In this document: positions 12,824-53,523 of the stretch, in pieces
Layout of the letters: each line of letters opens with the position of its first letter
Position numbering within the stretch: position 1 is the first letter of the stretch
Assembly: GCA_002009975.1 (NCBI GenBank)
Contig: MTLP01000022.1
Location: 1-64,000, forward strand
DNA length: 64,000 nucleotides
DNA from: Thermococcus sp. JdFR-02
GTDB taxonomy: Archaea; Methanobacteriota_B; Thermococci; Thermococcales; Thermococcaceae
Reading direction: 5' to 3'
Made by a program: the position numbers and the translations under genes
The notes under the pieces: model-generated
Seen by the model: the letters and a program-made list of their open reading frames with translations, nothing else
What the model was told of the DNA's origin: nothing
Database searches by the model: none

Positions 12824-14176
12824 TCAACCGCTTAGCTCTTCTTCCACAATTTGCTTCATGGTTGCTATGGCTTCCTCGGGAGTTATTTCTCCTCTCATTG
12901 CTGCTGCCATTGCATCACTGAATTTACCCTCTAAGATACCTGACTTTGGACCCCATAGGAATACTACCACATTGTCATACTTGAATGATAGTGTCTTTGC
13001 GTGTTGTGGCCACATGTCTGGATCATTCTCAAAGCCCTTTAGGCTTGGTAATGCGTGACCACCTTTAACTACAAGCTCTTTTTGTCCTTCTGGACCTAAG
13101 ACATACTCAACAAACTTCCATGTCTCTTGTGGGTGCTCAGACTTTGCGTTTATACCTAAGATAACGGTATATGCCATAGTTGCTCTTCCTTTCTTTCCAG
13201 CTGGAACTGGAGCAATGTCCCAATCTTCACCATACTTGAAGTCTGGGAATTGATCCGCTAAGAATGGGATCATCCAGTTACCACTTATCACCATTGCAAC
13301 TTCTTGTTGACCAAAGGCATCTCCTAACCAACCAGCTCCAACGTCACCTGGTTGGACAACATAGGGTGTCTTTCCTTGGTTTTCCATTTCAATCTTACCA
13401 ATTCTGTACAAGTTAATGTACCATGTTAATGTTTCCTTGACAACTGGGTTGTCAAACCATGAAGCATCTGCTGGTTTTTCAAACCATGGCTTTGGAGCGC
13501 CATTGCTAATAGCAACTGGAACATACCTGTTGAATCCTCCCAAATATATGGCCAATCCTGGCTTTCCAGTCTTTTCGGCAATAATCTTTGCATATTGCTC
13601 TAATTCTTCCCAGGTTTCAGGAGGCTTTGTTAAACCAGCTTGTGCAAAGAGCTTCTTGTTATAGAATAGGGCTAACATACTCCAGTCTTTTGGAAGCCCA
13701 TAGAGCTTTCCATCTTTCTTAAATGGTTCTAATAGGAATGGATAGAATTGGTCAATAAAGCTCTTGTCTGCGAGGTCAGAGATTGGATATAATGCTCCTT
13801 TTTCTATGAAGATTGGTGACCATGAGCTGTCAACGTAGAAGACATCGGGTGCTACCCCGGCTCCAAATGAAGCTAAAATGTTCTCATGGAACATTTGGGT
13901 GATGACTTCGTATTTAACCCCTATTGTTGGATTTTTCTTTTCGAATTCTTCAATGAGTGCTTGATACTTCTTCATCTCAGTTTCTCCAGCACTCCAGCCA
14001 GCAAACCTTATGAAAACTTTCTCTTGGGTTTCAACCTTTGTTTCTACTTTTGTTTCTGTCTTTACAATGGTTTCTGGAGTTGCTGTTTCTTTTTCTCCAC
14101 CTATACATCCAGCTGCAACAATAGCCAACAAAAGCACTGAAACTAAAACAAGACTGTGGACCATTTTTTTCTTCAT
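12824..14176 (-). CDS. extracellular sugar-binding lipoprotein (MalE type)
   Basis: The 450-residue protein begins with a lipoprotein signal (LVLVSVLLLAIVAAGC, lipobox AAGC, Cys near residue 24) and a Thr/Glu-rich linker, then a family 1 solute-binding domain (YKALIEEFEKKNP-like start, Walker-free, Trp-rich). It would be anchored outside the membrane and hand an oligosaccharide to the MalFG-like permease. The sugar is not known; the locus with GH65 and GH130 enzymes suggests an alpha-glucobiose or a manno-containing sugar. A TATA element and GAGGTG ribosome site precede it. Confidence 0.9.
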   Translation of the reverse strand: MKKKMVHSLVLVSVLLLAIVAAGCIGGEKETATPETIVKTETKVETKVETQEKVFIRFAGWSAGETEMKKYQALIEEFEKKNPTIGVKYEVITQMFHENILASFGAGVAPDVFYVDSSWSPIFIEKGALYPISDLADKSFIDQFYPFLLEPFKKDGKLYGLPKDWSMLALFYNKKLFAQAGLTKPPETWEELEQYAKIIAEKTGKPGLAIYLGGFNRYVPVAISNGAPKPWFEKPADASWFDNPVVKETLTWYINLYRIGKIEMENQGKTPYVVQPGDVGAGWLGDAFGQQEVAMVISGNWMIPFLADQFPDFKYGEDWDIAPVPAGKKGRATMAYTVILGINAKSEHPQETWKFVEYVLGPEGQKELVVKGGHALPSLKGFENDPDMWPQHAKTLSFKYDNVVVFLWGPKSGILEGKFSDAMAAAMRGEITPEEAIATMKQIVEEELSG

Positions 14177-14321
14177 GCTTCAACACCTCTATACAGGGGA
14201 CTTCACATTTTATACTACAATAATATTATATAAACTTTATCTTTATTTTCTACAATATATTTAAATAGTAAAAATGTTATCTTAATTTAGTGCTGATGGT
14301 GTCGATGGGGGGAACATATTT
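14177..14321. promoter_or_regulatory. divergent promoter between sugar importer and TrmB-type regulator
   Basis: Read on the minus strand, TTTATATAA (about 14226-14234) lies some 50 bases before the binding-protein start. On the plus strand, ATATATTTAAATAG (14253-14266) is a TATA candidate for the regulator, whose ribosome site is GGGGGGAA before ATG 14322. The string CTACAAT occurs at 14215-14221 and 14250-14256, each followed by an A/T stretch, so the pair may be half-sites for the regulator. The classic Thermococcales sugar-regulator (TGM) palindrome with TATCAC...GTGATA is not seen. Confidence 0.5.
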
Positions 14322-15383
14322 ATGGAGAATCTCACTCTAACGGTTATTAAAAAGCTCCAAGAGTTGGGCTTAACAAAAAGAGAAGCAGAAGTTTATCTAA
14401 CGATCTGGATAAAAAAAAGTGCTACAGTGAAGGATTTGTTAGATTCTTTAGACGTTCATCAACCCCAACTTTATAACATAATTCAAAGCCTTATTAGGAA
14501 GGGTTTTGTAAGAGCTTCAGCTGGAAGACCAAGAGTTTACATAGCAAGTGATATTACTTCTTTAATAGATGTTCAAAAGATGAAACTTGATATTCTAAAA
14601 AGAACTCTTGAAGAAGAGCTTAAGAAGATAAGGAGCAGATCAGAGGAAGAAGGACCCTATATTTCAATAGTTCGAAGTTTGGATGGAATTATCTCAAGTG
14701 TAATTGAAACTATAAACTCTGCAGAAGTTGAGATCAGAGCAGAACTTCCATATTCTATCTTTAAAGAACTCAAGCCTTATTTTTTGAGTGCTCTTCAAAG
14801 AGGAGTAAACTTGTATCTTCTAGTCTACCCAGGATTAGGAACGTTCAGTGAATTTGAGTTGTTTAAAGATCAAGTAAAGATAAAGACTTCTGAACTTGGG
14901 AATTTTCTTTTAATAATCTCTGATCTTTCAGTTGGAGTGTATTCCAGAAGAAGATTCTTTAGTACCAACAAATCACCAGTCTCAAACTCCGAGATTTATG
15001 GATATGTTGTGCAGGAAAAAGATCTCTTTCTTAGGCTTTTGAACATTCATAATAACTTGTGGCTGAAGGCTAAGGATGTACTCTGCTGGCAACCAAGACC
15101 AGAGATTTACCCCAAAACCTTTATAGAATTCTCTATGGCACTGGAGGAAATTAGAACACTTCTAAAGCTTAAATATACACCTATCGTAAGCGTTGAGGGA
15201 AGAGATGTAAAAGAAGGATTGCCCATAAAGATTAGGGGGAAAGTACGTTCTGTTAACAAATTAGGAATTATAAGCAACTTTGTTTTGGAAACTAATGAGG
15301 GAACAATGACTGTAGGAGGTTTTGATGCAGAGGTTGAAGACATTGAGGCTCAACGGATTACTATAGAAAAAGTTGAAAAATAG
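14322..15383 (+). CDS. TrmB-family sugar-responsive transcriptional regulator
   Basis: The 353-residue protein has an N-terminal winged helix (residues 1-75: LQELGLTKREAEVYLTIW and the recognition helix region QPQLYNIIQSLIRKGFV), a coiled linker, a PLD-like middle (residues ~115-240) and a C-terminal sugar-binding TrmB domain. Family members sense sugars such as maltose or trehalose and repress or activate nearby transport genes. Its position, diverging from an importer and leading a phosphorylase operon, makes it the likely local regulator. Confidence 0.88.
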   Translation: MENLTLTVIKKLQELGLTKREAEVYLTIWIKKSATVKDLLDSLDVHQPQLYNIIQSLIRKGFVRASAGRPRVYIASDITSLIDVQKMKLDILKRTLEEELKKIRSRSEEEGPYISIVRSLDGIISSVIETINSAEVEIRAELPYSIFKELKPYFLSALQRGVNLYLLVYPGLGTFSEFELFKDQVKIKTSELGNFLLIISDLSVGVYSRRRFFSTNKSPVSNSEIYGYVVQEKDLFLRLLNIHNNLWLKAKDVLCWQPRPEIYPKTFIEFSMALEEIRTLLKLKYTPIVSVEGRDVKEGLPIKIRGKVRSVNKLGIISNFVLETNEGTMTVGGFDAEVEDIEAQRITIEKVEK

Positions 15384-37786: not shown

Positions 37787-39701
37787 GCTTACCCCTCCTG
37801 CTTTTTTTAGGAGAAGGTAAAATTGTTGATGGCTTAAACTTTGGAAGAACAAAGATTTTATTCTTGTTTAGTCGCTTGGACTTCTTCCACCATGCTGAAT
37901 CATAAAAACCTAAAATAGCAACCTCTCCTTTTGGAAATCTTGGCTTTCTACGTACTCTTGTTTTAGCGAGTCTTGTTAATAAAACACTTGCAGAAGCTAT
38001 TAGCGCTACTTTTTGTGAAATTAGTTCCTTTTTCATACTTTGCTTTGATAAAATCATTTGAGGTATATTTGTTTCTTGAATTGTTCTTGTTTTCTCAATT
38101 ATTTCTTGCTCTTGTTTTATTCTTTGCTCTGGTTTGTTTATGAGAATTTTTTCCTTTTTAGATGATAACTTAAACATATTTTTATTGATTTCATATATGC
38201 TTGGCTCAACTTTGTATGTGGATCTTATTTGCTCTTTGCCTTGTCTGCCTTGTATAATGCTACTAGTCACTTCTTGCTCTTGTATATCCTTAATTTCAGG
38301 AATAATTCCAATTATCAAATTATCTTCATCTTCTTTGAAGCGTATTCTTTGAAACATTGGAGAAAGAGTAGCTCCAGCACCAATCACAGCAGTAGAGATG
38401 CTAATTTTTTGAACACCCCTTTTCATGAGCTGAGTTGCGACGTTTATATCTTGTTTTGCTTTTTCTACAAGAATTGTTTGTGGGATAATTGCAGCACCTC
38501 TACGGATTTTGAAAAAGCTTAGTTTACCTGTTGCATCTCTTGCATACCATCCAGAATGAACAACTTTATCTCCCTCTTTTAGCAACCATTCTGTTATCCC
38601 ACCTTTACTGTAAACTTCAATTGATTTTGTACCTTTTTGGATAAGCATGTATCCTTTTTGTGGGTCAATAATTAGCTTTTGTGTTGGTTCTGGACCAGAG
38701 AACACTTTCTCCCAAGGAGGAAGTCTTGGTCCTCCTTTGTTAATATTCACGTTTTTCGCTTGTATCACATTGTTTACTCTAGAGCTGCTTATGAGTGCTG
38801 AGAATGCTCCACCAGCCAATAATCCACCAGCTACTTCACCAAAAAGCTCTCCACTATAAAAGCTTTGTATGAATCCTTCTTTTATTGCTTTTCTGTTTAT
38901 CCAAATCTTTGGTGCTTGTGTTAAGAGTATTGGAATTTCTATAGGCAACATAAAGAATCCTATTGCACCTTGAACGATGTCTTTTCCGGTTTCTTTCACA
39001 GCCCAAGTAGCTCTAGAATCACCTGTATATGGTGTGTTCTCTATTCCAAAACTCTCAATAACGAACTGTGTTGGTGAGAATATCCAGTTCTCTGCTTGCT
39101 TGTTTCTCTGTAACTCTTCAAATGACATTGTTTGTGTTCCAATTAAGAAATCTGACTTATTCTGCTCAAACAAGCTTTGGTCATTGTTAAGCCCTAAAAA
39201 CTCTCTAGTTTTGTATATTCCTCTGTAGTATGCATCCATTCCTCTAAATAACTGCTCTTCTTTTGTTTTGTCGCCGAGTGAATGAGATTTTCCTGAAAGG
39301 TCATCTTCTTCTTGAACATTAGTATTTTTCTCACTTTTTACAGGAACCCTTTTATTGACTGCCACAAAACCGGTATCACTAACAAATCTATCTCTCTTTT
39401 GAGTTTCTATAAGCAACTTAGCTTTAAATAATGCCTCATTTGCTTGTTTTTCAACATATTGGTTAGATCTTTTTTCAAGCTGTATCTCATAGTGATCTCC
39501 CCTATCTATTGCACCTTTAAAAATAGCTATATCTCTCTTATACTTTTCCACAATCTCCTCTCTTGGTGGTTCTGCTTGTGCATAATCGTAATTCTCGATT
39601 GGGTGAGATAAATTAACTGTTATGTTGTATTCTGGATTATAATAAACATATCTTGTTTGTCCGTTTTTTGTTTTTGTAGTTCCAACAAAGATCAGTGCCA
39701 T
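37773..39701 (-). CDS. large virion-block protein, unknown (642 aa)
   Basis: There is no signal peptide. The N-terminal third is charged and mixed; two hydrophobic stretches sit near the middle (GFFMLPIEIPILLTQAPKIW, GEVAGGLLAGGAFSALISS), and the last part is basic with RKSR-type runs. Such a protein could span the virion membrane or bind DNA inside. It overlaps both neighbours. Length and position match one of the large internal genes of PAV1-like viruses by general layout only. Confidence 0.7.
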   Translation of the reverse strand: MALIFVGTTKTKNGQTRYVYYNPEYNITVNLSHPIENYDYAQAEPPREEIVEKYKRDIAIFKGAIDRGDHYEIQLEKRSNQYVEKQANEALFKAKLLIETQKRDRFVSDTGFVAVNKRVPVKSEKNTNVQEEDDLSGKSHSLGDKTKEEQLFRGMDAYYRGIYKTREFLGLNNDQSLFEQNKSDFLIGTQTMSFEELQRNKQAENWIFSPTQFVIESFGIENTPYTGDSRATWAVKETGKDIVQGAIGFFMLPIEIPILLTQAPKIWINRKAIKEGFIQSFYSGELFGEVAGGLLAGGAFSALISSSRVNNVIQAKNVNINKGGPRLPPWEKVFSGPEPTQKLIIDPQKGYMLIQKGTKSIEVYSKGGITEWLLKEGDKVVHSGWYARDATGKLSFFKIRRGAAIIPQTILVEKAKQDINVATQLMKRGVQKISISTAVIGAGATLSPMFQRIRFKEDEDNLIIGIIPEIKDIQEQEVTSSIIQGRQGKEQIRSTYKVEPSIYEINKNMFKLSSKKEKILINKPEQRIKQEQEIIEKTRTIQETNIPQMILSKQSMKKELISQKVALIASASVLLTRLAKTRVRRKPRFPKGEVAILGFYDSAWWKKSKRLNKNKIFVLPKFKPSTILPSPKKSRRGKRGLF

Positions 39702-40465
39702 TATCTCACCACCTGTTCAAGGAGTAGATCTAAGTCAATACCGTCGATCTTCTCGCTTATTTCATCAAATGCGTTTGCAATGCCAAGCTTTTTGATGATT
39801 TTTTCTCCTATATGACCTGCAAATGCCCTTACATGTGCGTTCTTTAGCCTTCTATATTCTTCTTCATCATTTGGAGCTGAAAACTTGAAATTCATTGTTG
39901 GAACAATGCCGCTTCTTGCGATTATCTGAGAAAAGCTTACTATTTTTCCAGATTTCTTCAGTTGTGTTGTTGCTTTTAGCAAAGCCCAAAGTCTTGGAGG
40001 AATCCATGCTCCTGCATACCCTCTACGGTAAACGTGAACTAAAATATCTGTACGTCTGTGGAGAACATCTAATTCCCAAAATGCAGGAGTACAAAATATA
40101 AAGACTTGTTTTAGTGCTCCAATTGACTTTAGAGCTTCATCAAAGAGTATGTTTTGTGAGCTCATTGCTCTTCTATGATGTAAAACGTTCTGAGCCTCGT
40201 CAATGATATGAACAGTTCCTGCTGGCGTTTGTTTTTGACTCTTTAAGCGCCTAAACATTATTGCAACGTCTGCAACTGTAAAGTAGACATTGTTTTCAAG
40301 CTCAAATCTCGCTCCATAGCTGTCTCTTAGATAATAAGCAATAGCCCTTGCGAGTGCAGATTTTCCAGTTCTTTCTCTCCCATCAACTAGAATGACAAGA
40401 TCCTCTTGTTCCTTCATTGCAACTTTAAATGCTCTACCTATCATCTCGAAGAACTTATTCGCCAT
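39701..40465 (-). CDS. P-loop ATPase, Zot/packaging-like (provirus)
   Basis: The 254-residue protein starts at ATG 40465 (GGAGGAAG upstream); an earlier in-frame ATG lacks a site. It has Walker A VDGRERTGKSALARAI (about residues 27-40) and Walker B GTVHIIDEAQNVL, with a sensor-like IFCTPAFWELD. This is the pattern of Zot-type and A32-like ATPases used by spindle-shaped and filamentous viruses for assembly or genome handling. Confidence 0.82.
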   Translation of the reverse strand: MANKFFEMIGRAFKVAMKEQEDLVILVDGRERTGKSALARAIAYYLRDSYGARFELENNVYFTVADVAIMFRRLKSQKQTPAGTVHIIDEAQNVLHHRRAMSSQNILFDEALKSIGALKQVFIFCTPAFWELDVLHRRTDILVHVYRRGYAGAWIPPRLWALLKATTQLKKSGKIVSFSQIIARSGIVPTMNFKFSAPNDEEEYRRLKNAHVRAFAGHIGEKIIKKLGIANAFDEISEKIDGIDLDLLLEQVVR

Positions 40466-40910
40466 TTTCTTCTTCCTCCACTGAGAGGGTTTGTGGGATT
40501 TCAAGCTGCATTATGTCTAATAGTCCATGTTTAACTGCAAACTTAACAAGAGCCTCAGCGACAATAATGAGGACATTTGCTTTGACATCCAAGGATATCT
40601 GCTCAGGCTTGAGTTCGAAACTCTTGAGGTGCTTGTAAATCTCGAACGCCTTTTTTTCCTTCTTATTTAATTCATCTGATTTTATCTTTGGCTCAATGAG
40701 TGTAAAAACCTCATCAATACTTGTTTGAAGATTTTGGAAGAGTTTAATATCAAATTTCCCATTAATATATTTTGATCTAAACTGAGCTAAAGAGGAATTT
40801 AAATCTAAAAGAGAAAAAGTCATGTAGAGGCGAAAAGCCTCATGGGGTCTTGCCATATCTTTTTTTATTGCTTGAGCTTCGTATTCAAAGAAGACATCTA
40901 ATTTTGTCAT
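40455..40910 (-). CDS. helical virion-block protein (provirus, 151 aa)
   Basis: It is an all-helical, charged protein (KAFEIYKHLKSFELKPEQIS, VNANVLIIVAEALVKFAVKH-like stretch) ending in acidic SVEEEENGE. It overlaps the ATPase by 11 bases and the next gene by four, so all three are co-translated. AGGTGG precedes ATG. No family recognised. Confidence 0.72.
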   Translation of the reverse strand: MTKLDVFFEYEAQAIKKDMARPHEAFRLYMTFSLLDLNSSLAQFRSKYINGKFDIKLFQNLQTSIDEVFTLIEPKIKSDELNKKEKKAFEIYKHLKSFELKPEQISLDVKANVLIIVAEALVKFAVKHGLLDIMQLEIPQTLSVEEEENGE

Positions 40911-41803
40911 ATCTTGACCACCTTTGTGGTGTTTTGTATTGTTTGATCGGCTAAGTGTCTAAGCAGTTCTGGAGAGATTTCAACATTCACTTGCGGTGGT
41001 TTTCCAAAACTCTTTAACATCATTATTGCAAATGCAAGACCAACAAGAACCAAGAATACCGCAAATGCGAATTTTACAATGTCGCTCTTGAGGACTGAGC
41101 TCATTTGTAGTGCGTATAAGTCCATATTTCCAGTAACTTTTGGAGCGCTTGCTCCATGTGAGTACTCTCCTATTAGGTTTAGATCAAGTTGTCTGACAAC
41201 AAGAACTTGTCTGTTAGTCTTGAGCTCCTCAAGTTGCATATTTTCCTTTACTTCAACTACTTGTGCATTCTTGTCAACAAAAGCCCTCATTTCCTGTTCT
41301 GTCCGCTTTAACTCATCATTAAGTGCTTTTAATGTTGCTTCAGCTTCTTTGAGTTTCTTTTCGTCCTGTATCTTACTCATTGAGTTTAACAACTTATTGT
41401 AGTCGTAGTTCAGCTCAAGATACTTTTTAATCAAATCATCTCTTCCAAGCTCTTTGAGAGCTGTTAAAATTGCCCACATGCTTGGATGTATTGAAGTACC
41501 ATATTCAACACTTAGTATGTAGAGTGGTTTACCCCAAAGGTATGTCTTGTGAGCAGGATTAACAATGAAATTGAGCTTTGATTTTCCAACCTTTATCCTT
41601 AGAATGTTTCCAATAATATCTTTAGTATAGCCAAATTTTGTTATTGCACCGTGCAGGATGTAAAAACTACCTGGTCCTGGAATCCTTCCTTTAATGACAG
41701 TTCCACCAAGAGCAAGAGCAATTATTGAGACTGTTGTTAGTACTGAAATTGTCATTATCATCATTATAAGGAATGTTGAACTGACAACAACAGGTACGCC
41801 CAT
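40907..41803 (-). CDS. two-helix membrane protein with coiled coil (provirus, 298 aa)
   Basis: An N-terminal membrane helix (LIMMIMTISVLTTVSIIALA), a soluble domain with YILHGAITKFGYTKDIIGNI, a coiled coil (EATLKALNDELKRTEQEMRA) and a second membrane helix near the end (FAFAVFLVLVGLAFAIMML-like) are visible. GGGGGTGA precedes ATG. It may link the ATPase to the membrane during assembly. Confidence 0.74.
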   Translation of the reverse strand: MGVPVVVSSTFLIMMIMTISVLTTVSIIALALGGTVIKGRIPGPGSFYILHGAITKFGYTKDIIGNILRIKVGKSKLNFIVNPAHKTYLWGKPLYILSVEYGTSIHPSMWAILTALKELGRDDLIKKYLELNYDYNKLLNSMSKIQDEKKLKEAEATLKALNDELKRTEQEMRAFVDKNAQVVEVKENMQLEELKTNRQVLVVRQLDLNLIGEYSHGASAPKVTGNMDLYALQMSSVLKSDIVKFAFAVFLVLVGLAFAIMMLKSFGKPPQVNVEISPELLRHLADQTIQNTTKVVKI

Positions 41804-42276
41804 TAGTACTCACCCCCAAATGGGAAAAACTTTCTTCTCCTTGGTAATTGAGGGATATTTGCCTGATAACTAATGACTTTCGAGATTTGACTTATTTTAT
41901 CCAATAGATGTCCGCTCTTTGCTCTTGAGAGATGAGCATTAACATAAATCTTAAGCATCTCAAAGTCTTCAATCGTCGCTTTTAGTTCATCTCCCATAAA
42001 TTTTGGAATTTGGAACAGCTCAATGAGTTCTAACTTTGCGAGTGATGCCCTAACCATGCTAATTTCTTTCTCAGAAAAGTTAGCAAGACTTAAACTTGGA
42101 TCCTTTAGCGTTATAAGTTTCTCCAAGCGACTTGGGAAATATCTTTCACTGTCTCTGATCGCATTAATAATAACGTCATTAGTTTCAAAACTTGGTGTTG
42201 CTTTAATTTCAGTTCTAAATTCCTTTAGAACGTCATCCAATGGATTTAATTGTGGATATTCATTAAATTCATTCAC
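41803..42276 (-). CDS. helical virion-block protein (provirus, 157 aa)
   Basis: It starts at GTG 42276 with GGAGGGG ahead. Entirely helical and charged (FSEKEISMVRASLAKLELIE, LKIYVNAHLSRAKSG), ending in basic PRRRKFFPFGG. No family recognised. It overlaps the upstream and downstream genes. Confidence 0.7.
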   Translation of the reverse strand: MNEFNEYPQLNPLDDVLKEFRTEIKATPSFETNDVIINAIRDSERYFPSRLEKLITLKDPSLSLANFSEKEISMVRASLAKLELIELFQIPKFMGDELKATIEDFEMLKIYVNAHLSRAKSGHLLDKISQISKVISYQANIPQLPRRRKFFPFGGEY

Positions 42277-42568
42277 CTCTACCCCTCCTGAAAGTGTTTA
42301 CCCAATTTTGATCTAAGAAAACTCCAACCGTGTAAACAAGTCCAGCTATGAATGCACCCCACCACATAAATGCCAGTCCCCATTCATTTCCTTCAAGCTG
42401 AAGAACACTTCCAGAATCCGTTATTACGTTTAAATCAAAGCTATAAATTCCAGCAATTAAAAAAAGTGCACTCCCCACTGCAATTAGGAGTGGATTATCA
42501 CCATTCGCTCCAGCAATATACATTGCTGCTGCAATTACGAGTACTACTAAGTATATTTCCAACAGCAT
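42269..42568 (-). CDS. three-helix membrane protein (provirus, 99 aa)
   Basis: It starts at ATG 42568 after GAGGTGGG. Three membrane segments: LEIYLVVLVIAAAMYIAG, LLIAVGSALFLIAGIYSF and LAFMWWGAFIAGLVYTVGVF, with a short outside loop between the last two. It sits next to the VP1-like protein and could be a minor coat protein. Confidence 0.76.
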   Translation of the reverse strand: MLLEIYLVVLVIAAAMYIAGANGDNPLLIAVGSALFLIAGIYSFDLNVITDSGSVLQLEGNEWGLAFMWWGAFIAGLVYTVGVFLDQNWVNTFRRGRGE

Positions 42569-42604
42569 AGTATCCCACCTCAAAAATAAATTGAAGAAAA
42601 AGGA

Positions 42605-43015
42605 TCAGCCTCTACCTATAAAAGCGTAAACTGCACCTATGAGCATTCCAAATACTGATACTAATATTGTCAGACCCCATGCCTCGAAACCTTGTCCTGT
42701 ATAGCTAAGGAAATTTTGATACGGTGTATAGAAAGTGCTATTTGCTGAAATCTTTGCAGAAACTGTTGGTTCGACTTGTGCTACAACCATAATTGCAATG
42801 AAAGCTGTAATAAAAACTGCTGCTAATGCTGCACCAACTCTTGGATCTAATGAACCTCTTCTCCTTGCGAAATTTATTTCCCAAGGCATGATGACTGGTG
42901 TTCTTTGCTTTTCAAGTTTCTCAAGCCTACTTAGTGCCTTTGCCTGTGCCTTCTCTAACCCTACTACCACAAAACTCAAAACAAGCAAAATTGGCGTCGG
43001 TAGTTTAAACTTCAC
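42605..43015 (-). CDS. VP1-like two-helix major coat protein of spindle-shaped virus
   Basis: The 136-residue protein starts at GTG 43015 (GAGGAGGTGGG upstream). A basic N-terminal part ends in PWEINFARRRGSLDPR, followed by two long membrane helices (VGAALAAVFITAFIAIMVVA and AWGLTILVSVFGMLIGAVYA) with a polar loop. Fusellovirus VP1 and PAV1/TPV1 coat proteins have this order, with removal of the N-terminal part before the helices. The order of this block supports it as the main virion protein. Confidence 0.72.
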   Translation of the reverse strand: MKFKLPTPILLVLSFVVVGLEKAQAKALSRLEKLEKQRTPVIMPWEINFARRRGSLDPRVGAALAAVFITAFIAIMVVAQVEPTVSAKISANSTFYTPYQNFLSYTGQGFEAWGLTILVSVFGMLIGAVYAFIGRG

Positions 43016-43226
43016 ATGCCCACCTCCTCAAATAGGATTCCAACAGAAAAATTAGCCCCAAATCTTTAAATAACTTAGTCAAACGCTTTCTTTGGGCTAA
43101 AGAAGTCATAACAATGCTTATTATGTTTGTCAAACTTTCTAAATTAAGGCATATAATATAATCTAATTAATATGGTTGGAAAATCTTGCTCACTATGACA
43201 AACAAAAAAGAAAGTGTGTGAGAAAG

Positions 43227-43514
43227 TTAGACAAGCTCTTCGATTGCCTTGAGTAGAGACTTCTTCGAGTCACTTCTTGTTCTCATCTTCAAAAGAGGAG
43301 CAAGTTTCTCTGGAGGTATCCTAAGTGAAAGAGATAAAACAGCAAGTTCATAGACCTTTGCTCTGTTACTAAGCTCGTATTTTTCCTGTAATCTTTCAAC
43401 TATTTTTCTCAATGTTTCGTTCTCTCTAATATATGTGTAATCGTCTTTTTTCTCTTTGAAATATTTCAGCAATATTATCTTTTGTGCTTGTTCTAACTCT
43501 AACACTTCAGCCAT
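43227..43514 (-). CDS. small helical protein, possible regulator (provirus, 95 aa)
   Basis: It is an acidic then basic helical protein: LEQAQKIILLKYFKEKKDDY, then ENETLRKIVERLQEKYELSN and ends in SLLKAIEELV. AAGGTGAAG precedes ATG. The 200-base gap to the VP1-like gene downstream holds the promoter of the virion block. Whether it controls that promoter is open. Confidence 0.65.
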   Translation of the reverse strand: MAEVLELEQAQKIILLKYFKEKKDDYTYIRENETLRKIVERLQEKYELSNRAKVYELAVLSLSLRIPPEKLAPLLKMRTRSDSKKSLLKAIEELV

Positions 43515-43525
43515 AATTCTTCACC

Positions 43526-43630
43526 TTATTTTCTTGCCTTTTTCTTTATTGTCCTTCCAAGCCTCAAACCAAGTAGCATTGAAACAATTCCCAATCCAGA
43601 TAAAACTACCATCCAAAAAACCCAACTCAT
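43526..43630 (-). CDS. very small membrane protein (provirus, 34 aa)
   Basis: ATG at 43628-43630 overlaps the upstream stop (ATGA) and follows GGAGGTGAAAAA, so this tiny frame is well placed for translation. It is one membrane helix (WVFWMVVLSGLGIVSMLLGL) and a basic tail (RLGRTIKKKARK). It ends 11 bases before the next gene. Confidence 0.65.
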   Translation of the reverse strand: MSWVFWMVVLSGLGIVSMLLGLRLGRTIKKKARK

Positions 43631-44055
43631 TTTTTCACCTCCTTTGCAGGCTGGAAGCTTCGCCGTTCACGGCGAGGAGGAAAGCTCGTAAAGTTTATCT
43701 TCAGGAGATCCCATCCCAACGAGATCATGCCAACGAGGATTGTTAATAGTCCTATACTAGTGAGTCCAAAACCAACTTTTTCATCCCAACTCATCGGTGG
43801 ACCCTCATCAGAAGCCCAACAACACGTAGGAAATTCCTTATCAGTGAAATTGTGGGCTTCTAAGTACCTATCGACTGCATACATGCAAGTGCCTCCACAA
43901 GCAACCCTTATTCCAAGCTCTTTTTCAGCCCATTCAATTGCCTTGTATGTATTTTGAACACAGAGAGGAGGTTCCGCATGCTCTAGGATAACCCACCCTA
44001 CTACGAATAACAAAATCCCTATGCCGAGGACTACGAGATCCTCTTTGTATGTCAT
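43627..44055 (-). CDS. two-helix membrane protein with Cys-rich outer loop (provirus)
   Basis: The 142-residue protein has an N-terminal helix (VVLGIGILLFVVGWVILEHA), a loop of about 60 residues with five cysteines (PPLCVQ, RVACGGTCMYA, PTCCWASD), and a C-terminal helix (FGLTSIGLLTILVGMISLGW) with a basic tail. The cysteines probably form disulphides outside the cell. GGAGGA precedes ATG. It starts four bases into int-C. Confidence 0.76.
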   Translation of the reverse strand: MTYKEDLVVLGIGILLFVVGWVILEHAEPPLCVQNTYKAIEWAEKELGIRVACGGTCMYAVDRYLEAHNFTDKEFPTCCWASDEGPPMSWDEKVGFGLTSIGLLTILVGMISLGWDLLKINFTSFPPRRERRSFQPAKEVKK

Positions 44056-44885
44056 TCCTCCAACACCTCTTTTAGCTTATCAACAACGCGAGAATAAGCC
44101 GTATCGGCTTTTTTCATCAAATCGAGATAGTGCTTCTCAAGAACAGAGCGTGAAACTCTGCTATGAATAAAGTTCACAAGATATCCGTCAATATAATCAA
44201 TGAGAAAATTAGTGTGCCATTTCCTTATCGTTGAGGGATTAACGCGCCCATAGTGGAGCTTCTTGTTAATCGTATCGTACTTCACATTTACTTGGCTTAA
44301 CTCATGTACAAGCTCCGCTGGAAAGTATACGAAAAAGGCTGCTTTCGTGCCTTTTCTCCCCATGAGTGGATACTTCGCCGCTTTGCCAAAAACAATGACT
44401 TTTGAAGCATCGTAGTTTGTGAGCATGTCATGAACAGCTGAGAGCCTCGCTCCGCTATAAACAAGAAGCTTGAAGAAAAGCAAAGTATCTACATCTGCAT
44501 GCTTCTTGAAGTACTCATAAGCCTCTCTGAGCTCTTCAATTGAGATGTAGATTTCTCTTTTACCAGTTTGCTTGATTTTGATAATCTCTTTCAACTGCTC
44601 GTGCTCTTCCCTTGTAATCACGTTTATCTCTTTCAAGAAGTGTATGAAATTTCTAAGTGCCTTGCAGAGGTTACGCTTGTAGTTTTCCTTGATTAATGCT
44701 TTTTGCAAGTCTTCATAGCTGTGTACCTTGTACTTAGCAAAAAATCTCTCAAGTGCTCTTAAGTAGTCTTTCGCTGTCTTTGCGGCTACTTTTTGTGAGA
44801 GCCATTCGCCAAATTGCTCCTTATATTTATTCCACCACTCCTGCCACGCCGCGGGCCCGGGTTCAAATCCCGGCCACCGCACCAC
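44052..44885 (-). CDS. int: SSV-type integrase, C-terminal catalytic part (int-C)
   Basis: It begins inside attR (VRWPGFEPGPAAWQ) and continues with an alpha-helical core-binding domain (to about residue 120) and the tyrosine-recombinase catalytic domain. Catalytic residues: Arg in LVYSGARLSAVHD, Lys in GRKGTKAAFF, then STIRKWHTNFL where the usual first His is replaced by Ser but Arg is kept, His in FIHSRVSR and the nucleophile Tyr in LEKHYLDL. Joined to int-N (21399-21193) in the same frame after excision, it gives 346 residues. Confidence 0.9.
   Translation of the reverse strand: MVRWPGFEPGPAAWQEWWNKYKEQFGEWLSQKVAAKTAKDYLRALERFFAKYKVHSYEDLQKALIKENYKRNLCKALRNFIHFLKEINVITREEHEQLKEIIKIKQTGKREIYISIEELREAYEYFKKHADVDTLLFFKLLVYSGARLSAVHDMLTNYDASKVIVFGKAAKYPLMGRKGTKAAFFVYFPAELVHELSQVNVKYDTINKKLHYGRVNPSTIRKWHTNFLIDYIDGYLVNFIHSRVSRSVLEKHYLDLMKKADTAYSRVVDKLKEVLEE
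44840..44885 (+). repeat. right attachment site (attR), 46-bp direct repeat
   Basis: This is an exact copy of tRNA-Gly positions 21147-21192, without the 5' half of the tRNA, so it is not a functional tRNA. It marks the right end of the provirus. Confidence 0.95.
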
Positions 44886-45070
44886 AACTCATTCTTAGAA
44901 GCTTCTTCAATCTCTTCTTGGGATAAGTGCTCTTTTAGAAATCTGTTGGTCAATCTGAATAAGCTGTACTCTTTGTTGAGAACCTTTTCTACATCAACAT
45001 TTTTGAAATTGTTAGTAGAGCCCTATACTTCCTTTTCAAAGATCTTTAAGAGTTTTCCACACTTAAACTA
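44886..45070 (-). pseudogene. possible remnant of a second integrase N-part
   Basis: On the minus strand one frame reads LLKIFEKEV, an in-frame stop, GSTNNFKNVDVEKVL, then YSLFRLTNRFLKEHLSQEEI and EEASKNELWCGGRDLNPG as it enters the att core. The charged helical peptide running directly into the tRNA antisense is what an int-N looks like, but in a different frame from the resident integrase. The stop shows decay. It could instead be a chance open stretch. Confidence 0.3.
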
Positions 45071-45247
45071 GATATATCAGCCAATGATTGAGATTAAACT
45101 CCAATCGTTGGAATGTCAAGTTCAAGCCTCTAATTCCGAAGTTGAAGCCTACTATAAACGAGAAGAAGTATAAGATCAAACTATCCTAAACGATATAAAT
45201 GACAAAATCTAACATTTAACTAAGAATCACTTGGAGGGTATTAACAA
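44886..45247. other. 362-base stretch right of attR
   Basis: Apart from the possible integrase remnant, this gap holds the promoter of the next module: a TATA-like GATATAAATG at about 45194-45203 and GGAGGG ahead of ATG 45248. No RNA gene is visible. Confidence 0.5.
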
Positions 45248-45661
45248 ATGACCATTTTTGCCCCTTCCATTGCAAAGATATTATCTAAAATCTCCACCAA
45301 TGTATGGAACAAAATTGTTATGGATGAGCTAGAATTCAAACTCAGAGATCAACTTAAAAGATATGGATTTGGCAAGTTTGCCACTCTAATGATTGCTATA
45401 GGTTTAAACGATTATCAGTTTAAAGAACCGGCGGAAAGGGTCTATTGGTCCGAGATACATGAAATAATAAAAAACAAATCTGTTCCTAAAACTACAAAAG
45501 AATTAGAAGAGTTATTAGCTCCTTTCTACGAGAATAAACGATTACACAGGATCAAAATCAAGAGATTACAAAAATTTCTCAATAGTTGTATAACATATAT
45601 TTCTGGAATTCAAGTCCATCCGAAGTTAGTAGAAACTTTAGGTTATGATACAATACCATAA
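45248..45661 (+). CDS. protein resembling the N-terminal half of AGOG DNA glycosylase
   Basis: The 137-residue protein recalls, in order and spacing, the N-terminal helical part of archaeal AGOG (8-oxoguanine glycosylase): FATLMIAIGLNDYQFKEPAE, WSEIHEII, and ELLAPFYENKRLHRIKIKRL, where AGOG has a Q-x-x-G-x-x-x-Y-region and an SRFNRRLIPQK-like basic stretch. The catalytic HhH with its Lys and Asp lies in the C-terminal half of AGOG and is missing. It may bind DNA without cutting bases. It is followed 12 bases later by a two-domain protein. The likeness is from memory and needs a profile search. Confidence 0.45.
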   Translation: MTIFAPSIAKILSKISTNVWNKIVMDELEFKLRDQLKRYGFGKFATLMIAIGLNDYQFKEPAERVYWSEIHEIIKNKSVPKTTKELEELLAPFYENKRLHRIKIKRLQKFLNSCITYISGIQVHPKLVETLGYDTIP

Positions 45662-45673
45662 GGAGAGTTGTAA

Positions 45674-46654
45674 ATGGGCTTAAAGAGTCTTCATGCCAAT
45701 TTGCAAAATGAACTTGTTAAAATAGGTAATAAATTTGGATTCTTAGCTACAAAAGAGTATCATCTAAAAAATCTTTATCCAAGATACTCACCAATAGTCG
45801 ATGTAGTCTGGTTCTATCAACTCTCAGAAGAACAGTCATTAGCAATAAGCAAAGTATATGATTTATGGCGTTATTGGAAAGGTTCAAGAGCATTGTATCC
45901 ATATGTAGCCTTTGAAATTACATCTTTAGATGCCACCTCAAAGACAATCATGAGTGAAATCTGGAATCTAAAGCTTGCTGGGTTCAGATATTCTTTTAAT
46001 GTTGTTCCTAGTAAAAATCCAAAACATCCAGATTACATGCACAAAGAGAGAGCTGAAAGAATAGCTAGGACATTAAAACATTTTTCTGGAGTGAGTGATG
46101 CTTTTGTTGTTTCAATAGAAGAGCTTAAAGAAGCCATTTATAATATGAAAAGTTCTCCTATCAAGGTATTATCTACAAGGAAACCAACATTATTCAAAAT
46201 TCCACATTTGAGAGATAATCTCCACAATAACATAATACACAAGTTAGCAGAATTCGGAAAAAAACATGGTTTCATCCCTATGGTTGAGTACACTCCAAGC
46301 TGGCTCAAAAAGTTTGAGAAGAGAGCAACTTTTATTCGGCATGATGTTGTATGGCTCCTAGAATTGCCTGTTGATACTGAGATTCAGTTTAAGGAGTTCT
46401 TAAGATTTCTGGGGATTAATCCAGTTAGAGACGTTAATCCTATTGAAGTACTAGCTTTTGAAGTTGAATTAGGAGCTTTTAATAAGCACAGCATCGGCAG
46501 TGTTCTCAATCTTGCCAGAATATCCAGAAGAGGTGTTTTAGTAATAGAGAATAAAAAGCCCAATCTTACGGAGACTGTAAGGCTTATCTCATCCAACAGA
46601 GTAGATGTAAAGAGTGTTACTGAATTTAAAGAGCTGTTTAAGAATCTAAAGTAA
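45674..46654 (+). CDS. protein with two copies of one domain, unknown function
   Basis: The 326-residue protein repeats a unit: ELVKIGNKFGFLATKEYHL...DVVWFYQL...YVAFEIT (residues ~14-105) and NIIHKLAEFGKKHGFIPMVEY...DVVWLLEL...VLAFEVE (residues ~184-290). Each unit has a D and an E in strands (DVVW, AFE), as in restriction-endonuclease-like folds, but no clear E-x-K lysine. GGAGAG precedes ATG. It probably forms one operon with the AGOG-like gene. It may bind DNA or nick it; no family recognised. Confidence 0.7.
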   Translation: MGLKSLHANLQNELVKIGNKFGFLATKEYHLKNLYPRYSPIVDVVWFYQLSEEQSLAISKVYDLWRYWKGSRALYPYVAFEITSLDATSKTIMSEIWNLKLAGFRYSFNVVPSKNPKHPDYMHKERAERIARTLKHFSGVSDAFVVSIEELKEAIYNMKSSPIKVLSTRKPTLFKIPHLRDNLHNNIIHKLAEFGKKHGFIPMVEYTPSWLKKFEKRATFIRHDVVWLLELPVDTEIQFKEFLRFLGINPVRDVNPIEVLAFEVELGAFNKHSIGSVLNLARISRRGVLVIENKKPNLTETVRLISSNRVDVKSVTEFKELFKNLK

Positions 46655-51147: not shown

Positions 51148-51348
51148 TTACCATATCCAAAGTTTAGGGTCTGCTTCCTCCCTGCCTTGAAGGGTGAGGA
51201 GTCCTGTTGGAGGCTTATAGTCAGCCGCTAAGGAGTAACCCAAAAGAAAACCCCAGAGAATACTAAAAGGGACAATATAAGGAACATCACTCTTATCTGG
51301 CTTTTCATAGAGGGTCACCTTCTCATTAATGTTATTATTTGTCTGCAC
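51148..51348 (-). CDS. small single-helix protein of peptide cluster (66 aa)
   Basis: It starts at GTG 51348 with GAGGTTGTGAA upstream. A polar N-terminus is followed by one membrane helix (VPYIVPFSILWGFLLGYSLA) and a short outer tail with PPTGLLTLQGREEADPKLW. It is the last gene of the minus-strand small-peptide cluster. Confidence 0.6.
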   Translation of the reverse strand: MQTNNNINEKVTLYEKPDKSDVPYIVPFSILWGFLLGYSLAADYKPPTGLLTLQGREEADPKLWIW

Positions 51349-51349
51349 T

Positions 51350-51712
51350 TCACAACCTCAACGAAGTAGGCATAGTAAAATCCTGATAGAGAACTATTAG
51401 AGAGAGCACCAACATGAACAAAGCAAATCCAGCTATCACTACCCGTTTAATGTAAGATGCATCTTTGAGAAATTTTAAATTCTCCAATATAACAATCGAG
51501 ACAAATACTGCAAATGTCATTGCATCTGAAGCCATTAGATTCAATGGGATTCTCCGATTAATCTTGAGCATAATAACTAAAAGTAGGTATGGAAATGTAA
51601 CAATTCCCGCTTTTTGGAAGCTCTCGAGTGAGATATCCCCAAACTTTTTGTAGTTAAGCAATATGAATGAGAACAAAGAAATAAAGAGGACAGGATAATA
51701 CGTTGGGTTCAT
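51350..51712 (-). CDS. four-helix membrane protein of peptide cluster
   Basis: The 120-residue protein (ATG 51712, GAGGTGAGC before it) has about four membrane helices: YYPVLFISLFSFILLNY, VTFPYLLLVIMLKI, AMTFAVFVSIVILENL and VVIAGFALFMLVLSLIVLY. Small membrane proteins of this size serve as immunity or export partners in bacteriocin loci. No family recognised. Confidence 0.7.
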   Translation of the reverse strand: MNPTYYPVLFISLFSFILLNYKKFGDISLESFQKAGIVTFPYLLLVIMLKINRRIPLNLMASDAMTFAVFVSIVILENLKFLKDASYIKRVVIAGFALFMLVLSLIVLYQDFTMPTSLRL

Positions 51713-51724
51713 TAAGCTCACCTC

Positions 51725-51907
51725 TCATGCTGTGAGTCCACCACCGATTGTTGCAAGGGCTCCTCCGAATACTGCACCTAAACCACCACTAGCTATAGCA
51801 ATGCCAACTCCCCCAACAACAAGTGAAACACCAACTCCAATCATGGAATTTGCATCCGATAACTCCAGAGCATATCGTCCAGCCCTTGCATGGTAGTATT
51901 CTGCCAT
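51725..51907 (-). CDS. Gly/Ala-rich hydrophobic peptide, bacteriocin-like (60 aa)
   Basis: The 60-residue product has a polar start (MAEYYHARAGRYALELSDAN) and then a Gly/Ala/Ile/Val-rich hydrophobic stretch (MIGVGVSLVVGGVGIAIASG and GLGAVFGGALATIGG) to the end. The composition and length resemble circular or pore-forming bacteriocin precursors. AGGAGAC precedes ATG. It lies between a SpoIIM-like gene and small membrane proteins. Confidence 0.65.
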   Translation of the reverse strand: MAEYYHARAGRYALELSDANSMIGVGVSLVVGGVGIAIASGGLGAVFGGALATIGGGLTA

Positions 51908-51940
51908 AGTTTTGTCTCCTCTAAGAAGAGCTCTTTCGTA

Positions 51941-52081
51941 TTAATCCATATAGTAATTGTACATCTTTTTAGCAAAATGCCTTTTAATTGCTCCTATCTC
52001 AGCTTTTTCAGCAACTGCTCCATCAATTACCATTCCCACAGCCATCAACACCAGTCCCAACACCAAAGCTTTTCTCCACAT
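51941..52081 (-). CDS. 46-aa secreted peptide with shared leader
   Basis: This is a short frame, ATG 52079-52081 to TAA 51941-51943, with GGGGTGATTAAA before it. The first 22 residues (WRKALVLGLVLMAVGMV then IDGAV) form a signal-like helix, and the tail is charged (EKAEIGAIKRHFAKKMYNYY). The leader is nearly identical to that of the 88-residue product at 52877. Confidence 0.65.
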   Translation of the reverse strand: MWRKALVLGLVLMAVGMVIDGAVAEKAEIGAIKRHFAKKMYNYYMD

Positions 52082-52086
52082 TTTAA

Positions 52087-52650
52087 TCACCCCAAACTTT
52101 CGGCAATTTTAAGTGTTATTGTACTCTCAATCAGAGCAGCAATGAAGATTAAAATCATCGAGATAGCAACAAGCTTGAAGAATTCCTTAGCATCCTCCTC
52201 ACTAATCATCTCCTCCTTCTTGCCCAAAGCAAATCTTAAGGCTTCGTAAGGAATCTTGAAGCCAGCTGCTCCGGCTATAATTAAAGCGGGGATTTCGAAA
52301 ATGCCGTGGGGGAAGATTAGGAGAAAGAATGTTTTAACTTCGCCTAAGCTTAAGGAAGACTGGAATAATACTCCCAAGTTAATTCCATTCATGATTAAGT
52401 TTAGAAAAGTCAAACCCCCAAAAGTCAAAACACCGCCAAATGAAAGGAGAAGAATAACTTTGAAATTGTTTGCGAAGATATAAGAAAAACTTAGCTTTTC
52501 TTCACTAAACTCTCTTTCTAAAAATGGGGCAATATTGACATTTTCATGTTCATGAATTTTATAATGGGTTGAGAGTGAAATCCCAAGGAGAAACCCAATA
52601 AAAAATAGTAGAGATGAAAGGAAAATAGGCCTGTTGAGCTTCTCCTTCAA
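52087..52650 (-). CDS. SpoIIM/DUF95-family membrane protein
   Basis: The 187-residue protein starts at TTG 52650, overlapping the upstream stop, with GGAGG seven bases ahead. It has five membrane helices and the family pattern FANNFKVILLLSFGGVLTFG, NGINLGVLF and FPHGIFEIPALIIAGAAGFK. DUF95 (SpoIIM) proteins are needed for production of or immunity to circular bacteriocins such as AS-48, besides their role in sporulation. Here the sporulation role cannot apply, so the peptide link is the best one. Confidence 0.85.
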   Translation of the reverse strand: MKEKLNRPIFLSSLLFFIGFLLGISLSTHYKIHEHENVNIAPFLEREFSEEKLSFSYIFANNFKVILLLSFGGVLTFGGLTFLNLIMNGINLGVLFQSSLSLGEVKTFFLLIFPHGIFEIPALIIAGAAGFKIPYEALRFALGKKEEMISEEDAKEFFKLVAISMILIFIAALIESTITLKIAESLG

Positions 52651-52865
52651 TTTTGAGCCTCCTTTGCCATTGGTAGGAGGAATTCTATGGCATATCCAAG
52701 CTCTGCGTATATTATTGTAAAGGCTAGCATTGCCCCAAGGAAGTCTGTCACTGATTTAATGGGAAGGAAGTCGTTAAAGAGTAACGCTATGCTCACAGTT
52801 GTTCCAAAAGCCATTATGAACCCAACGACAAGTAAGCCAATGTACTTTCTAATAGATCCCTTCAT
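52647..52865 (-). CDS. two-helix membrane protein of peptide cluster (72 aa)
   Basis: It starts at ATG 52865 with GGGGGAC ahead; a longer in-frame start lies inside the upstream gene without a site. Two membrane helices: YIGLLVVGFIMAFGTTVSIA and MLAFTIIYAELGYAIEFLL. Small two-helix proteins accompany SpoIIM in bacteriocin loci. It overlaps the SpoIIM-like gene by four bases. Confidence 0.68.
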   Translation of the reverse strand: MKGSIRKYIGLLVVGFIMAFGTTVSIALLFNDFLPIKSVTDFLGAMLAFTIIYAELGYAIEFLLPMAKEAQN

Positions 52866-52876
52866 ATAACGTCCCC

Positions 52877-53143
52877 CTAGGCCCACACCGCAAGACCAAC
52901 ATAGGGTATTGCCTTTGCTACAGTTTTTAAACCAAACTTTAGAGCAAATTTTGTGGCTACTGCAGCGCTTCCTAATGCTGCAGTGCCTGCCTTTACCCCA
53001 CCCATAGCTTGTCGCCAATCTCCTGTTTTGTGCCACCTATAAATCCCATATGCTATATCAAATTTCCCTTTTTCAACTGCTCCACCCACTACCATTCCTA
53101 CAGTCATCAACACTAGCCCTAACACTAAAGCCTTCCTCCACAT
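52877..53143 (-). CDS. 88-aa secreted peptide precursor, bacteriocin-like
   Basis: ATG 53143 is preceded by GGTGGTTTTCAA. A 22-residue signal-like leader (WRKALVLGLVLMTVGMV) is shared with the peptide at 51941. The middle is charged (EKGKFDIAYGIYRWHKTGDW), and the last 42 residues are helical, Ala/Gly-rich and cationic (GGVKAGTAALGSAAVATKFA, LKFGLKTVAKAIPYVGLAVW). That tail has the look of a pore-forming or circular peptide, so it is the likely first gene and main product of the cluster. Confidence 0.68.
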   Translation of the reverse strand: MWRKALVLGLVLMTVGMVVGGAVEKGKFDIAYGIYRWHKTGDWRQAMGGVKAGTAALGSAAVATKFALKFGLKTVAKAIPYVGLAVWA

Positions 53144-53523
53144 TTGAAAACCACCAATCGAGTTCGTGTTCTTAATACTATTTAAAGTTTTCTTTATAAT
53201 TCCATAATTACTATTGACATTTTTATGATGATTGAACAGAATATATAACAATCACAAATAGTAAGTTGTGGTTCCCATTAAGTCATTGAAAATTTGTAAG
53301 TACGTGAGTTTTTGAGCAAAGCAATGCAATGGAAGATCAAAAATCAGATTGCTAATCTGACTGAAAGAAAGTTTTGCAAGTACTTGTCCGATTTCCACAG
53401 GAGAATTGATCTGACTCTCAATCTAAATAGATTGTACAACTTCACAGGGGGTAGAAACTAAAGTTCATATCATTAACCTAAGGGTTATAAACTTAATCTA
53501 CATCTCTTATTTTGGTGGTGAAA
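53144..53523. other. 380-base stretch between peptide cluster and SRP54
   Basis: It contains the minus-strand promoter of the peptide cluster and, near 53480-53510, the plus-strand leader of SRP54. A plus-strand frame of about 47 codons (53322-53461: MQWKIKNQIANLTERKFCKY, later FHRRIDLTLNLNRLYNF) has no ribosome site and looks like a gene remnant. No RNA gene is recognised. Confidence 0.4.

What the first reader, a model, noticed from the sequence alone, without database searches (positions are those of the whole stretch)
51148..53143. Candidate archaeal circular-bacteriocin-like locus
Seven overlapping minus-strand genes include a SpoIIM/DUF95 membrane protein, three very small hydrophobic or leader-bearing peptides (46, 60 and 88 residues) and small two- to four-helix proteins. 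DUF95 proteins are production/immunity factors of circular bacteriocins. The 88-residue product ends in a 42-residue cationic Ala/Gly-rich helix and the 60-residue product in a Gly-rich hydrophobic stretch. No obvious ABC exporter is inside the cluster.
Basis: partly seen in the sequence, partly recalled or inferred. Interest (0 to 1): 0.75.

Follow-up and report, generated by a model that had tools for sequence, protein, structure and literature searches.

The report
Archaeal circular-bacteriocin-like peptide modules
Heat-loving archaea carry swappable three-gene units that appear to make a secreted, bacteriocin-like peptide, a matching membrane protein that probably protects the producer, and a SpoIIM export protein; the window holds one intact unit and one decayed unit, and the layout resembles bacterial circular bacteriocins although the peptide sequences are unrelated and no ring has been shown.

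Summary
The locus is real, but the anatomy needs correcting. It is one intact three-gene module (88-aa precursor, 72-aa membrane partner, SpoIIM/DUF95) followed by a decayed second one. The '46' and '60' peptides are one precursor cut by an in-frame TAA. In 17 of 94 Thermococcales genomes the same module occurs with a near-constant leader (MWRKALxLGLVLMAxGMVVGGA) and a hypervariable Ala/Gly-rich core. All 33 strong leader copies lie beside a cluster-type SpoIIM. Archaeoglobales and Methanococcales have the same module with their own leaders. Core and partner co-vary (Mantel r=0.62, p=5e-5), travel together between genera and orders, and do not co-vary with the leader. This is the signature of a secreted toxin with cognate immunity. 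Architecture, core size and SpoIIM match bacterial circular bacteriocins such as gassericin A. The cores do not match those families by Pfam, NCBIfam, PDB or profile comparison, and cyclisation and killing are untested. The gene clusters were noticed before (arCOG01996, 2014/2015) but read as a defence or membrane-remodelling system. My reading: a new, archaeal variant of the circular-bacteriocin type of system. Secreted peptide plus immunity is likely; the ring itself is inferred.

The parts
52877..53143 (-). Precursor peptide 1 (88 aa): constant leader (residues 1-22, 53078-53143) plus variable cationic Ala/Gly-rich core (residues 23-88, 52880-53077)
   Evidence: ORF and coding score; leader family; dN/dS 0.14, core 0.25, against the G080 homologue
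53171..53190 (-). Promoter-like (TATA-type) box AAACTTTAAATAGTATTAAG upstream of precursor 1
   Evidence: Similar ACTTTAAATAGTA or ACTTTTTATTGTA boxes lie upstream of the first precursor in the other loci; function inferred
52647..52865 (-). Small two-helix membrane partner 1 (72 aa), predicted immunity protein
   Evidence: family F5 beside the same core type in L037, L042 and L044; partner-core co-variation; dN/dS 0.11
52087..52650 (-). SpoIIM/DUF95 membrane protein (187 aa, TTG start), cluster-type subfamily
   Evidence: PF01944 E 1.9e-32; subfamily alignment with PHGxFE motif and 80% identical C-half
51725..52081 (-).
51350..51721 (-). Small multi-helix membrane protein in the partner position of module 2 (120-123 aa)
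   Evidence: Coding score; no Pfam match; no homologue found in the fetched loci
51148..51348 (-). 66-aa ORF, possible truncated remnant of the module-2 SpoIIM (GFLLGYSLAADYK resembles the SpoIIM N-terminus)
   Evidence: Weak BLAST match E 8e-4 over 23 aa

Best explanation
The locus is a circular-bacteriocin-like peptide module. A precursor is made with a lineage-specific, signal-like leader. The leader is removed and the 55-70-residue helical, Ala/Gly-rich core is exported with the help of SpoIIM and an ABC-2 exporter that is beside the module in some loci and in trans here. The core is probably joined head to tail, as in bacterial SpoIIM-dependent bacteriocins, and inserts into the membranes of competing archaea. 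The small membrane protein between precursor and SpoIIM protects the producer from its own core. Shown here: gene anatomy, constant leader and variable core, core-partner pairing, cassette exchange, purifying selection, homology of SpoIIM to that of gassericin A. Inferred: cleavage, export, killing, immunity, cyclisation. Module 2 of the window is decayed.
For: Leader nearly invariant while the cores differ. 33 of 33 strong leader copies lie in SpoIIM loci (Fisher p 8e-17). The order precursor - small membrane protein - SpoIIM is repeated, in tandem arrays in some genomes. The same module with different leaders occurs in Archaeoglobales and Methanococcales. The only two cross-order partner matches fall on the same module pairs as the two strongest cross-order core matches (L055-L081, L043-L073). 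Mantel: core~partner r=0.62, p=5e-5; core~leader r=-0.02; partner~SpoIIM r=0.04. Between the window and another genus (G080), core plus partner are 82-98% identical in nearly every stretch while the leader is 71-78% and SpoIIM falls to 58% (dS core 0.17, partner 0.36, SpoIIM 1.29). Core length (median 66), Ala+Gly 35%, hydropathy 0.67 and a non-charged, mostly hydrophobic last residue in 45 of 47 resemble four known circular bacteriocins. The gassericin A cluster has the same parts, and its SpoIIM matches the archaeal profile (E 1e-8). SpoIIM is described as class-defining and needed for export of leucocyclicin Q (PMC13289728, PMC7132975).
Against: No match of any core to PF09221, PF12173 or TIGR03651, or to PDB bacteriocins, and none by profile comparison. 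AlphaFold2 models are all-helical but of low confidence (pLDDT 52 and 59). No transporter in the window cluster. No dedicated leader peptidase or cyclase is shared by the loci; a transglutaminase-like neighbour is confined to 7 of 94 genomes. The leader also fits an ordinary Sec signal, which would not need SpoIIM. No activity or mass data.
Confidence: 0.58

Rival explanations
1. Linear secreted archaeocin: the leader is a Sec signal peptide, the mature peptide stays linear and makes pores, the partner gives immunity, and SpoIIM helps export or immunity.
For: Leader with charged start, hydrophobic stretch and small residues before the core; same toxin-immunity signature; cores unlike known circular bacteriocins.
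Against: SpoIIM is the hallmark of circular bacteriocins (PMC13289728) and is always present; nearly all cores end in non-charged, mostly hydrophobic residues and have the size of circular ones.
Confidence: 0.24
2. Membrane-remodelling or vesicle-forming complex, as proposed for arCOG01996 neighbourhoods in 2015 (PMC5898192).
For: SpoIIM acts in engulfment in Bacillus; Yip1-family proteins follow SpoIIM in Methanococcales loci.
Against: Does not explain a constant leader with hypervariable cores, core-specific partners, cassette swapping, patchy presence and decay.
Confidence: 0.08
3. Intracellular membrane toxin-antitoxin or phage-defence unit: the peptide depolarises the producer's own membrane and the partner is the antitoxin. 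Makarova 2014 suggested a membrane-associated defence system.
For: Hydrophobic peptide paired with a membrane partner; VapBC-type genes follow SpoIIM in several loci.
Against: A leader conserved within each order but swapped between orders on homologous cores points to host-specific processing or export; tandem arrays of different cores fit a secreted repertoire better.
Confidence: 0.08

Closest known systems
Bacterial circular bacteriocins, subgroup ii (gassericin A cluster, Lactobacillus gasseri pLgLA39)
   Same: Small precursor with leader, SpoIIM/DUF95, a short hydrophobic ORF, ABC ATPase and ABC-2 permease; core size, Ala/Gly content and hydrophobicity; homologous SpoIIM with the PHGxFE motif
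   Different: Core sequences unrelated; archaeal partner lies between precursor and SpoIIM; exporter often absent from the cluster; constant leader shared by many different cores
Bacterial circular bacteriocins, subgroup i (AS-48, uberolysin, circularin A, carnocyclin A; PF09221)
   Same: About 60-70-residue hydrophobic helical core; SpoIIM in the cluster
   Different: No sequence or profile match (controls 66, 67); fold not established
arCOG01996 (DUF95) gene cassettes of Archaeoglobi, Methanococci and Thermococci (Makarova et al. 2014, PMC4158269; 2015, PMC5898192)
   Same: Same lineages, DUF95 with small diverged membrane proteins, Yip1 and a SalXY-like ABC transporter: almost certainly the same loci
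   Different: Interpreted as a defence or membrane-remodelling/vesicle system; the text read does not mention leaders, precursor cores, core-partner pairing or circular bacteriocins
VARTIG modules of Thermococcales (PMC8416519)
   Same: Hypervariable, exchangeable conflict-type loci in Thermococcales
   Different: Centred on a large Ig-domain protein; no such protein in these loci and no SpoIIM mentioned

Membership tests
Circular (head-to-tail cyclised) bacteriocins | Short precursor with leader and a 58-70-residue hydrophobic core | tested here: met
   47 cores, 51-98 aa, median 66, Ala+Gly 35%, hydropathy 0.67; leader conservation
Circular (head-to-tail cyclised) bacteriocins | SpoIIM/DUF95 gene in the cluster | tested here: met
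   PF01944 E 1.9e-32; archaeal profile matches gassericin SpoIIM E 1e-8
Circular (head-to-tail cyclised) bacteriocins | Small hydrophobic immunity protein encoded beside the precursor | tested here: met
   Anatomy only: partner median 86 aa, hydropathy 1.0, co-varies with the core. Immunity itself not tested
Circular (head-to-tail cyclised) bacteriocins | ABC transporter in the cluster | tested here: inconclusive
   None in the window. ABC-2 permease (PF12679) beside the precursor or module in several relatives, with a DrrA-type ATPase in some, including contig C3 of the same genome; but its accessory protein is present in 61 of 94 genomes
Circular (head-to-tail cyclised) bacteriocins | Precursor belongs to PF09221, PF12173 or TIGR03651, or matches a solved circular bacteriocin | tested here: not met
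   No such match for 47 precursors up to E 5 in Pfam and NCBIfam; no PDB match for two core profiles up to E 10; Pfam and PDB controls behave; hhalign negative
Circular (head-to-tail cyclised) bacteriocins | Saposin-like 4-5-helix globular fold | tested here: inconclusive
   All-helical AlphaFold2 models with pLDDT 52 and 59, pTM about 0.3
Circular (head-to-tail cyclised) bacteriocins | Peptide bond between N- and C-terminus | not testable with these tools
   Needs mass spectrometry
Circular (head-to-tail cyclised) bacteriocins | Antimicrobial activity | not testable with these tools
   Needs an inhibition assay
arCOG01996 DUF95 cassettes (Makarova 2014/2015) | DUF95 paralogue with small diverged membrane proteins in Archaeoglobi, Methanococci and Thermococci | tested here: met
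   Same lineages and neighbours (Yip1, SalXY/MacB-like ABC); arCOG assignment itself not run

The most novel reading that the evidence does not exclude
Hyperthermophilic Euryarchaeota wage chemical warfare with a modular repertoire of head-to-tail circular peptides. A lineage-specific leader and a largely constant SpoIIM form a fixed chassis into which core-plus-immunity cassettes are swapped between genera and orders. These would be the first circular bacteriocin-type archaeocins.
Probability: 0.45. Interest if true: 0.88.

Novelty: new variant of a known kind. Interest (0 to 1): 0.75.

Why it matters
Peptide antibiotics of hyperthermophilic archaea are hardly known, and no SpoIIM-type circular bacteriocin in archaea turned up in the open literature searched. 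If right, it assigns a concrete function to a gene family long listed as archaeal dark matter, adds a large set of naturally heat-stable antimicrobial candidates, and offers a clear natural case of toxin-immunity cassettes exchanged behind a constant export leader. It can be tested in culturable hyperthermophiles.

Tried and rejected
Reading the 46- and 60-aa ORFs as two peptides: rejected, same frame with one nonsense codon. Homology of cores to AS-48-type or gassericin-type peptides by HMM, PDB sequence and hhalign: negative, with Pfam and PDB controls. Structure-based comparison: two AlphaFold2 jobs gave low confidence, so no fold search was run. Transglutaminase-like neighbour as a general cyclase: rejected, 7 of 94 genomes. 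The large secreted NPCBM/Ig protein as a module-specific part: rejected, 61 of 94 genomes. Carriage by viruses: no relative in viral contigs. SpoIIM as generic housekeeping: the generic paralogue (30-41% identity) is near-universal in the order but has no leader peptide beside it.

Full report
What is in the window. On the minus strand between 53143 and 51148 lie, in order: an 88-aa leader-bearing peptide (53143-52877), a 72-aa two-helix membrane protein (52865-52647), a 187-aa SpoIIM/DUF95 protein with a TTG start (52650-52087; PF01944 E 1.9e-32), a second leader-bearing ORF, a 120-123-aa membrane protein (51721-51350) and a 66-aa ORF (51348-51148). A codon-usage score supports all of them as coding. 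Flanks are ordinary: an MFS-type transporter and a 192-aa protein on one side, an SRP54-like gene on the other.

Correction of the observation. The second leader-bearing ORF stops at TAA 51941-51943 and continues in the same frame to 51725. The '46-aa' and '60-aa' peptides are therefore one 118-codon precursor with a nonsense codon. An intact homologue in another genus (L046:9377) has AAA at that position. The 66-aa ORF weakly resembles the N-terminus of SpoIIM and may be the rest of a second, decayed module. The window thus holds one intact module and one broken one.

The family. A profile of the leader finds 33 strong copies (E <= 4e-10) in 17 of 94 Thermococcales genomes, all inside loci with a SpoIIM of the cluster type. 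Co-occurrence is 17 with both, 0 leader only, 2 SpoIIM only (a remnant and a contig-edge copy), 75 neither (Fisher p 8e-17). The generic SpoIIM paralogue (30-41% identity) is present in nearly all genomes and has no leader peptide beside it. The window genome has three such loci (C7 = window, C3, C15). Residues W2, K4, L6 and L12 of the leader are invariant and G9, G16 and G21 nearly so, whereas the cores share almost nothing. Most first precursors carry a similar promoter-like box.

The module. Order is precursor, small hydrophobic protein, SpoIIM, often in tandem; one genome (G085) has an array of several modules. The small protein belongs to many unrelated families, each tied to a core type. 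Among 19 non-redundant Thermococcales modules, core similarity predicts partner similarity (Mantel r 0.62, p 5e-5) but not leader similarity (r -0.02), and partner does not follow SpoIIM (r 0.04). The N-half of SpoIIM (40% identical) tracks the core weakly (r 0.37, p 0.018, 11 modules), the C-half (80% identical) does not.

Beyond Thermococcales. A scan of 84,980 species genomes for the SpoIIM subfamily led to Archaeoglobales (Archaeoglobus, Geoglobus, Ferroglobus) and Methanococcales (Methanocaldococcus, Methanothermococcus), where most loci with enough flanking sequence have the same order: a precursor with an order-specific leader (MYAVRxWDEEVxKWLAVGMCLAMVGMAVMPAVxVGD; MKLNLLKGFAAVAMLCMVGAVFA or MKFLxKxVYKIFGAVVLVSMIGALVAEP), a small membrane protein, and SpoIIM. 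Two homologous core-plus-partner pairs cross the orders behind different leaders: L055 with L081 (core E 1e-7, partner E 1e-7) and L043 with L073 (core E 6e-8, partner E 3e-5). These are the only cross-order partner matches found, and the same pairs give the two strongest cross-order core matches.

Exchange and selection. The window module and its homologue in another genus (G080, L037) are 82-98% identical in DNA through core and partner apart from the core-partner junction (74%), but 71-78% in the leader, down to 58% inside SpoIIM and 33-51% outside. Synonymous divergence is 0.17 (core), 0.36 (partner) and 1.29 (SpoIIM). So core and partner move as a cassette. dN/dS of the precursor (0.14) and partner (0.11) shows purifying selection after the transfer.

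How it probably works. A peptide exported by a lineage-adapted leader, hypervariable outside it, with a co-inherited membrane partner, in patchy, duplicated and decaying loci, is best read as a secreted antagonist with cognate immunity. SpoIIM is described as class-defining for circular bacteriocins and is needed for export of leucocyclicin Q (PMC7132975, PMC13289728). The gassericin A cluster (L094), a tested example, has precursor - SpoIIM - short hydrophobic ORF - ABC ATPase - ABC-2 permease, and its SpoIIM matches the archaeal profile, including LPHGIFE. In several Thermococcales loci an ABC-2 permease (PF12679) is divergently transcribed from the precursor or adjacent to the module, with a DrrA-type ATPase in some. 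Methanococcales have Yip1, a CARDB protein and a MacB-like ABC transporter downstream. The cores have the size and composition of circular bacteriocins. Cyclisation, killing and immunity are inferred.

Limits. No core matches a known circular-bacteriocin family by Pfam, NCBIfam, PDB or profile comparison, with Pfam and PDB controls behaving as expected. AlphaFold2 was not confident. No dedicated cyclase or leader peptidase was identified. Partner genes were assigned by position (next gene downstream). The cleavage site is a guess between Gly21 and Asp29.

Prior work. Makarova et al. 2014 noted DUF95 (arCOG01996) clusters with variable membrane proteins in Archaeoglobi, Pyrococci and Methanococcales and suggested a membrane-associated defence system, with a figure legend naming a predicted antimicrobial-peptide transporter; in 2015 they preferred membrane remodelling or vesicle formation. 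I found no open-access paper that describes the leaders, the precursors, the pairing or a link to circular bacteriocins. Subscription papers and preprints were not searchable.

Verdict. The gene cluster is real and known in outline. The anatomy and evolution found here make it, most likely, an archaeal variant of the SpoIIM-dependent bacteriocin type. Membership in the circular bacteriocins proper is not established.

Noticed in passing
window 39701-46654: A block of ORFs with a tyrosine-integrase-like protein (44885-44052), an ATPase-like protein (40504-39701) and coiled-coil/membrane ORFs looks like an integrated mobile element or provirus a few kb from the module.
   Followed up: no
L043:9205-9822, L051:4931-5543, L056:6592-7171, L066:6609-7251, L067:1358-1979, L071:1328-1953, L072:6581-7232 and 9090-9736, L080:1574-2220: VapBC-like pairs (a short DUF104-type antitoxin and a PIN-type toxin, judged by eye) sit directly downstream of SpoIIM in several loci of all three orders, sometimes degraded; they may stabilise the modules.
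   Followed up: no
L046:7935-9224, L047:8457-9746, L048:10571-11758 and 13311-14600, L050, L053, L054, L057: An AAA_14/DUF4143 ATPase follows SpoIIM on the same strand in eight loci, twice within one array.
   Followed up: partly
L046:5034-6425, L037:10515-11870, L048:4537-5892, L050:5130-6485: A secreted transglutaminase-like protein is divergent from the first precursor in four genomes and found in only 7 of 94 Thermococcales; it could act on peptides but cannot be the general cyclase.
   Followed up: partly
L071, L074: Two 3-kb contigs binned as bacteria (Desulfurellaceae, Arcobacter) carry Archaeoglobales-type leaders and SpoIIM and are probably misbinned archaeal contigs.
   Followed up: no
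L065, L068, L069 downstream of SpoIIM: Methanococcales loci continue with Yip1, a CARDB-domain secreted protein and (in L068 and L069) a MacB-like ABC ATPase and permease, a conserved set that may be their exporter.
   Followed up: partly
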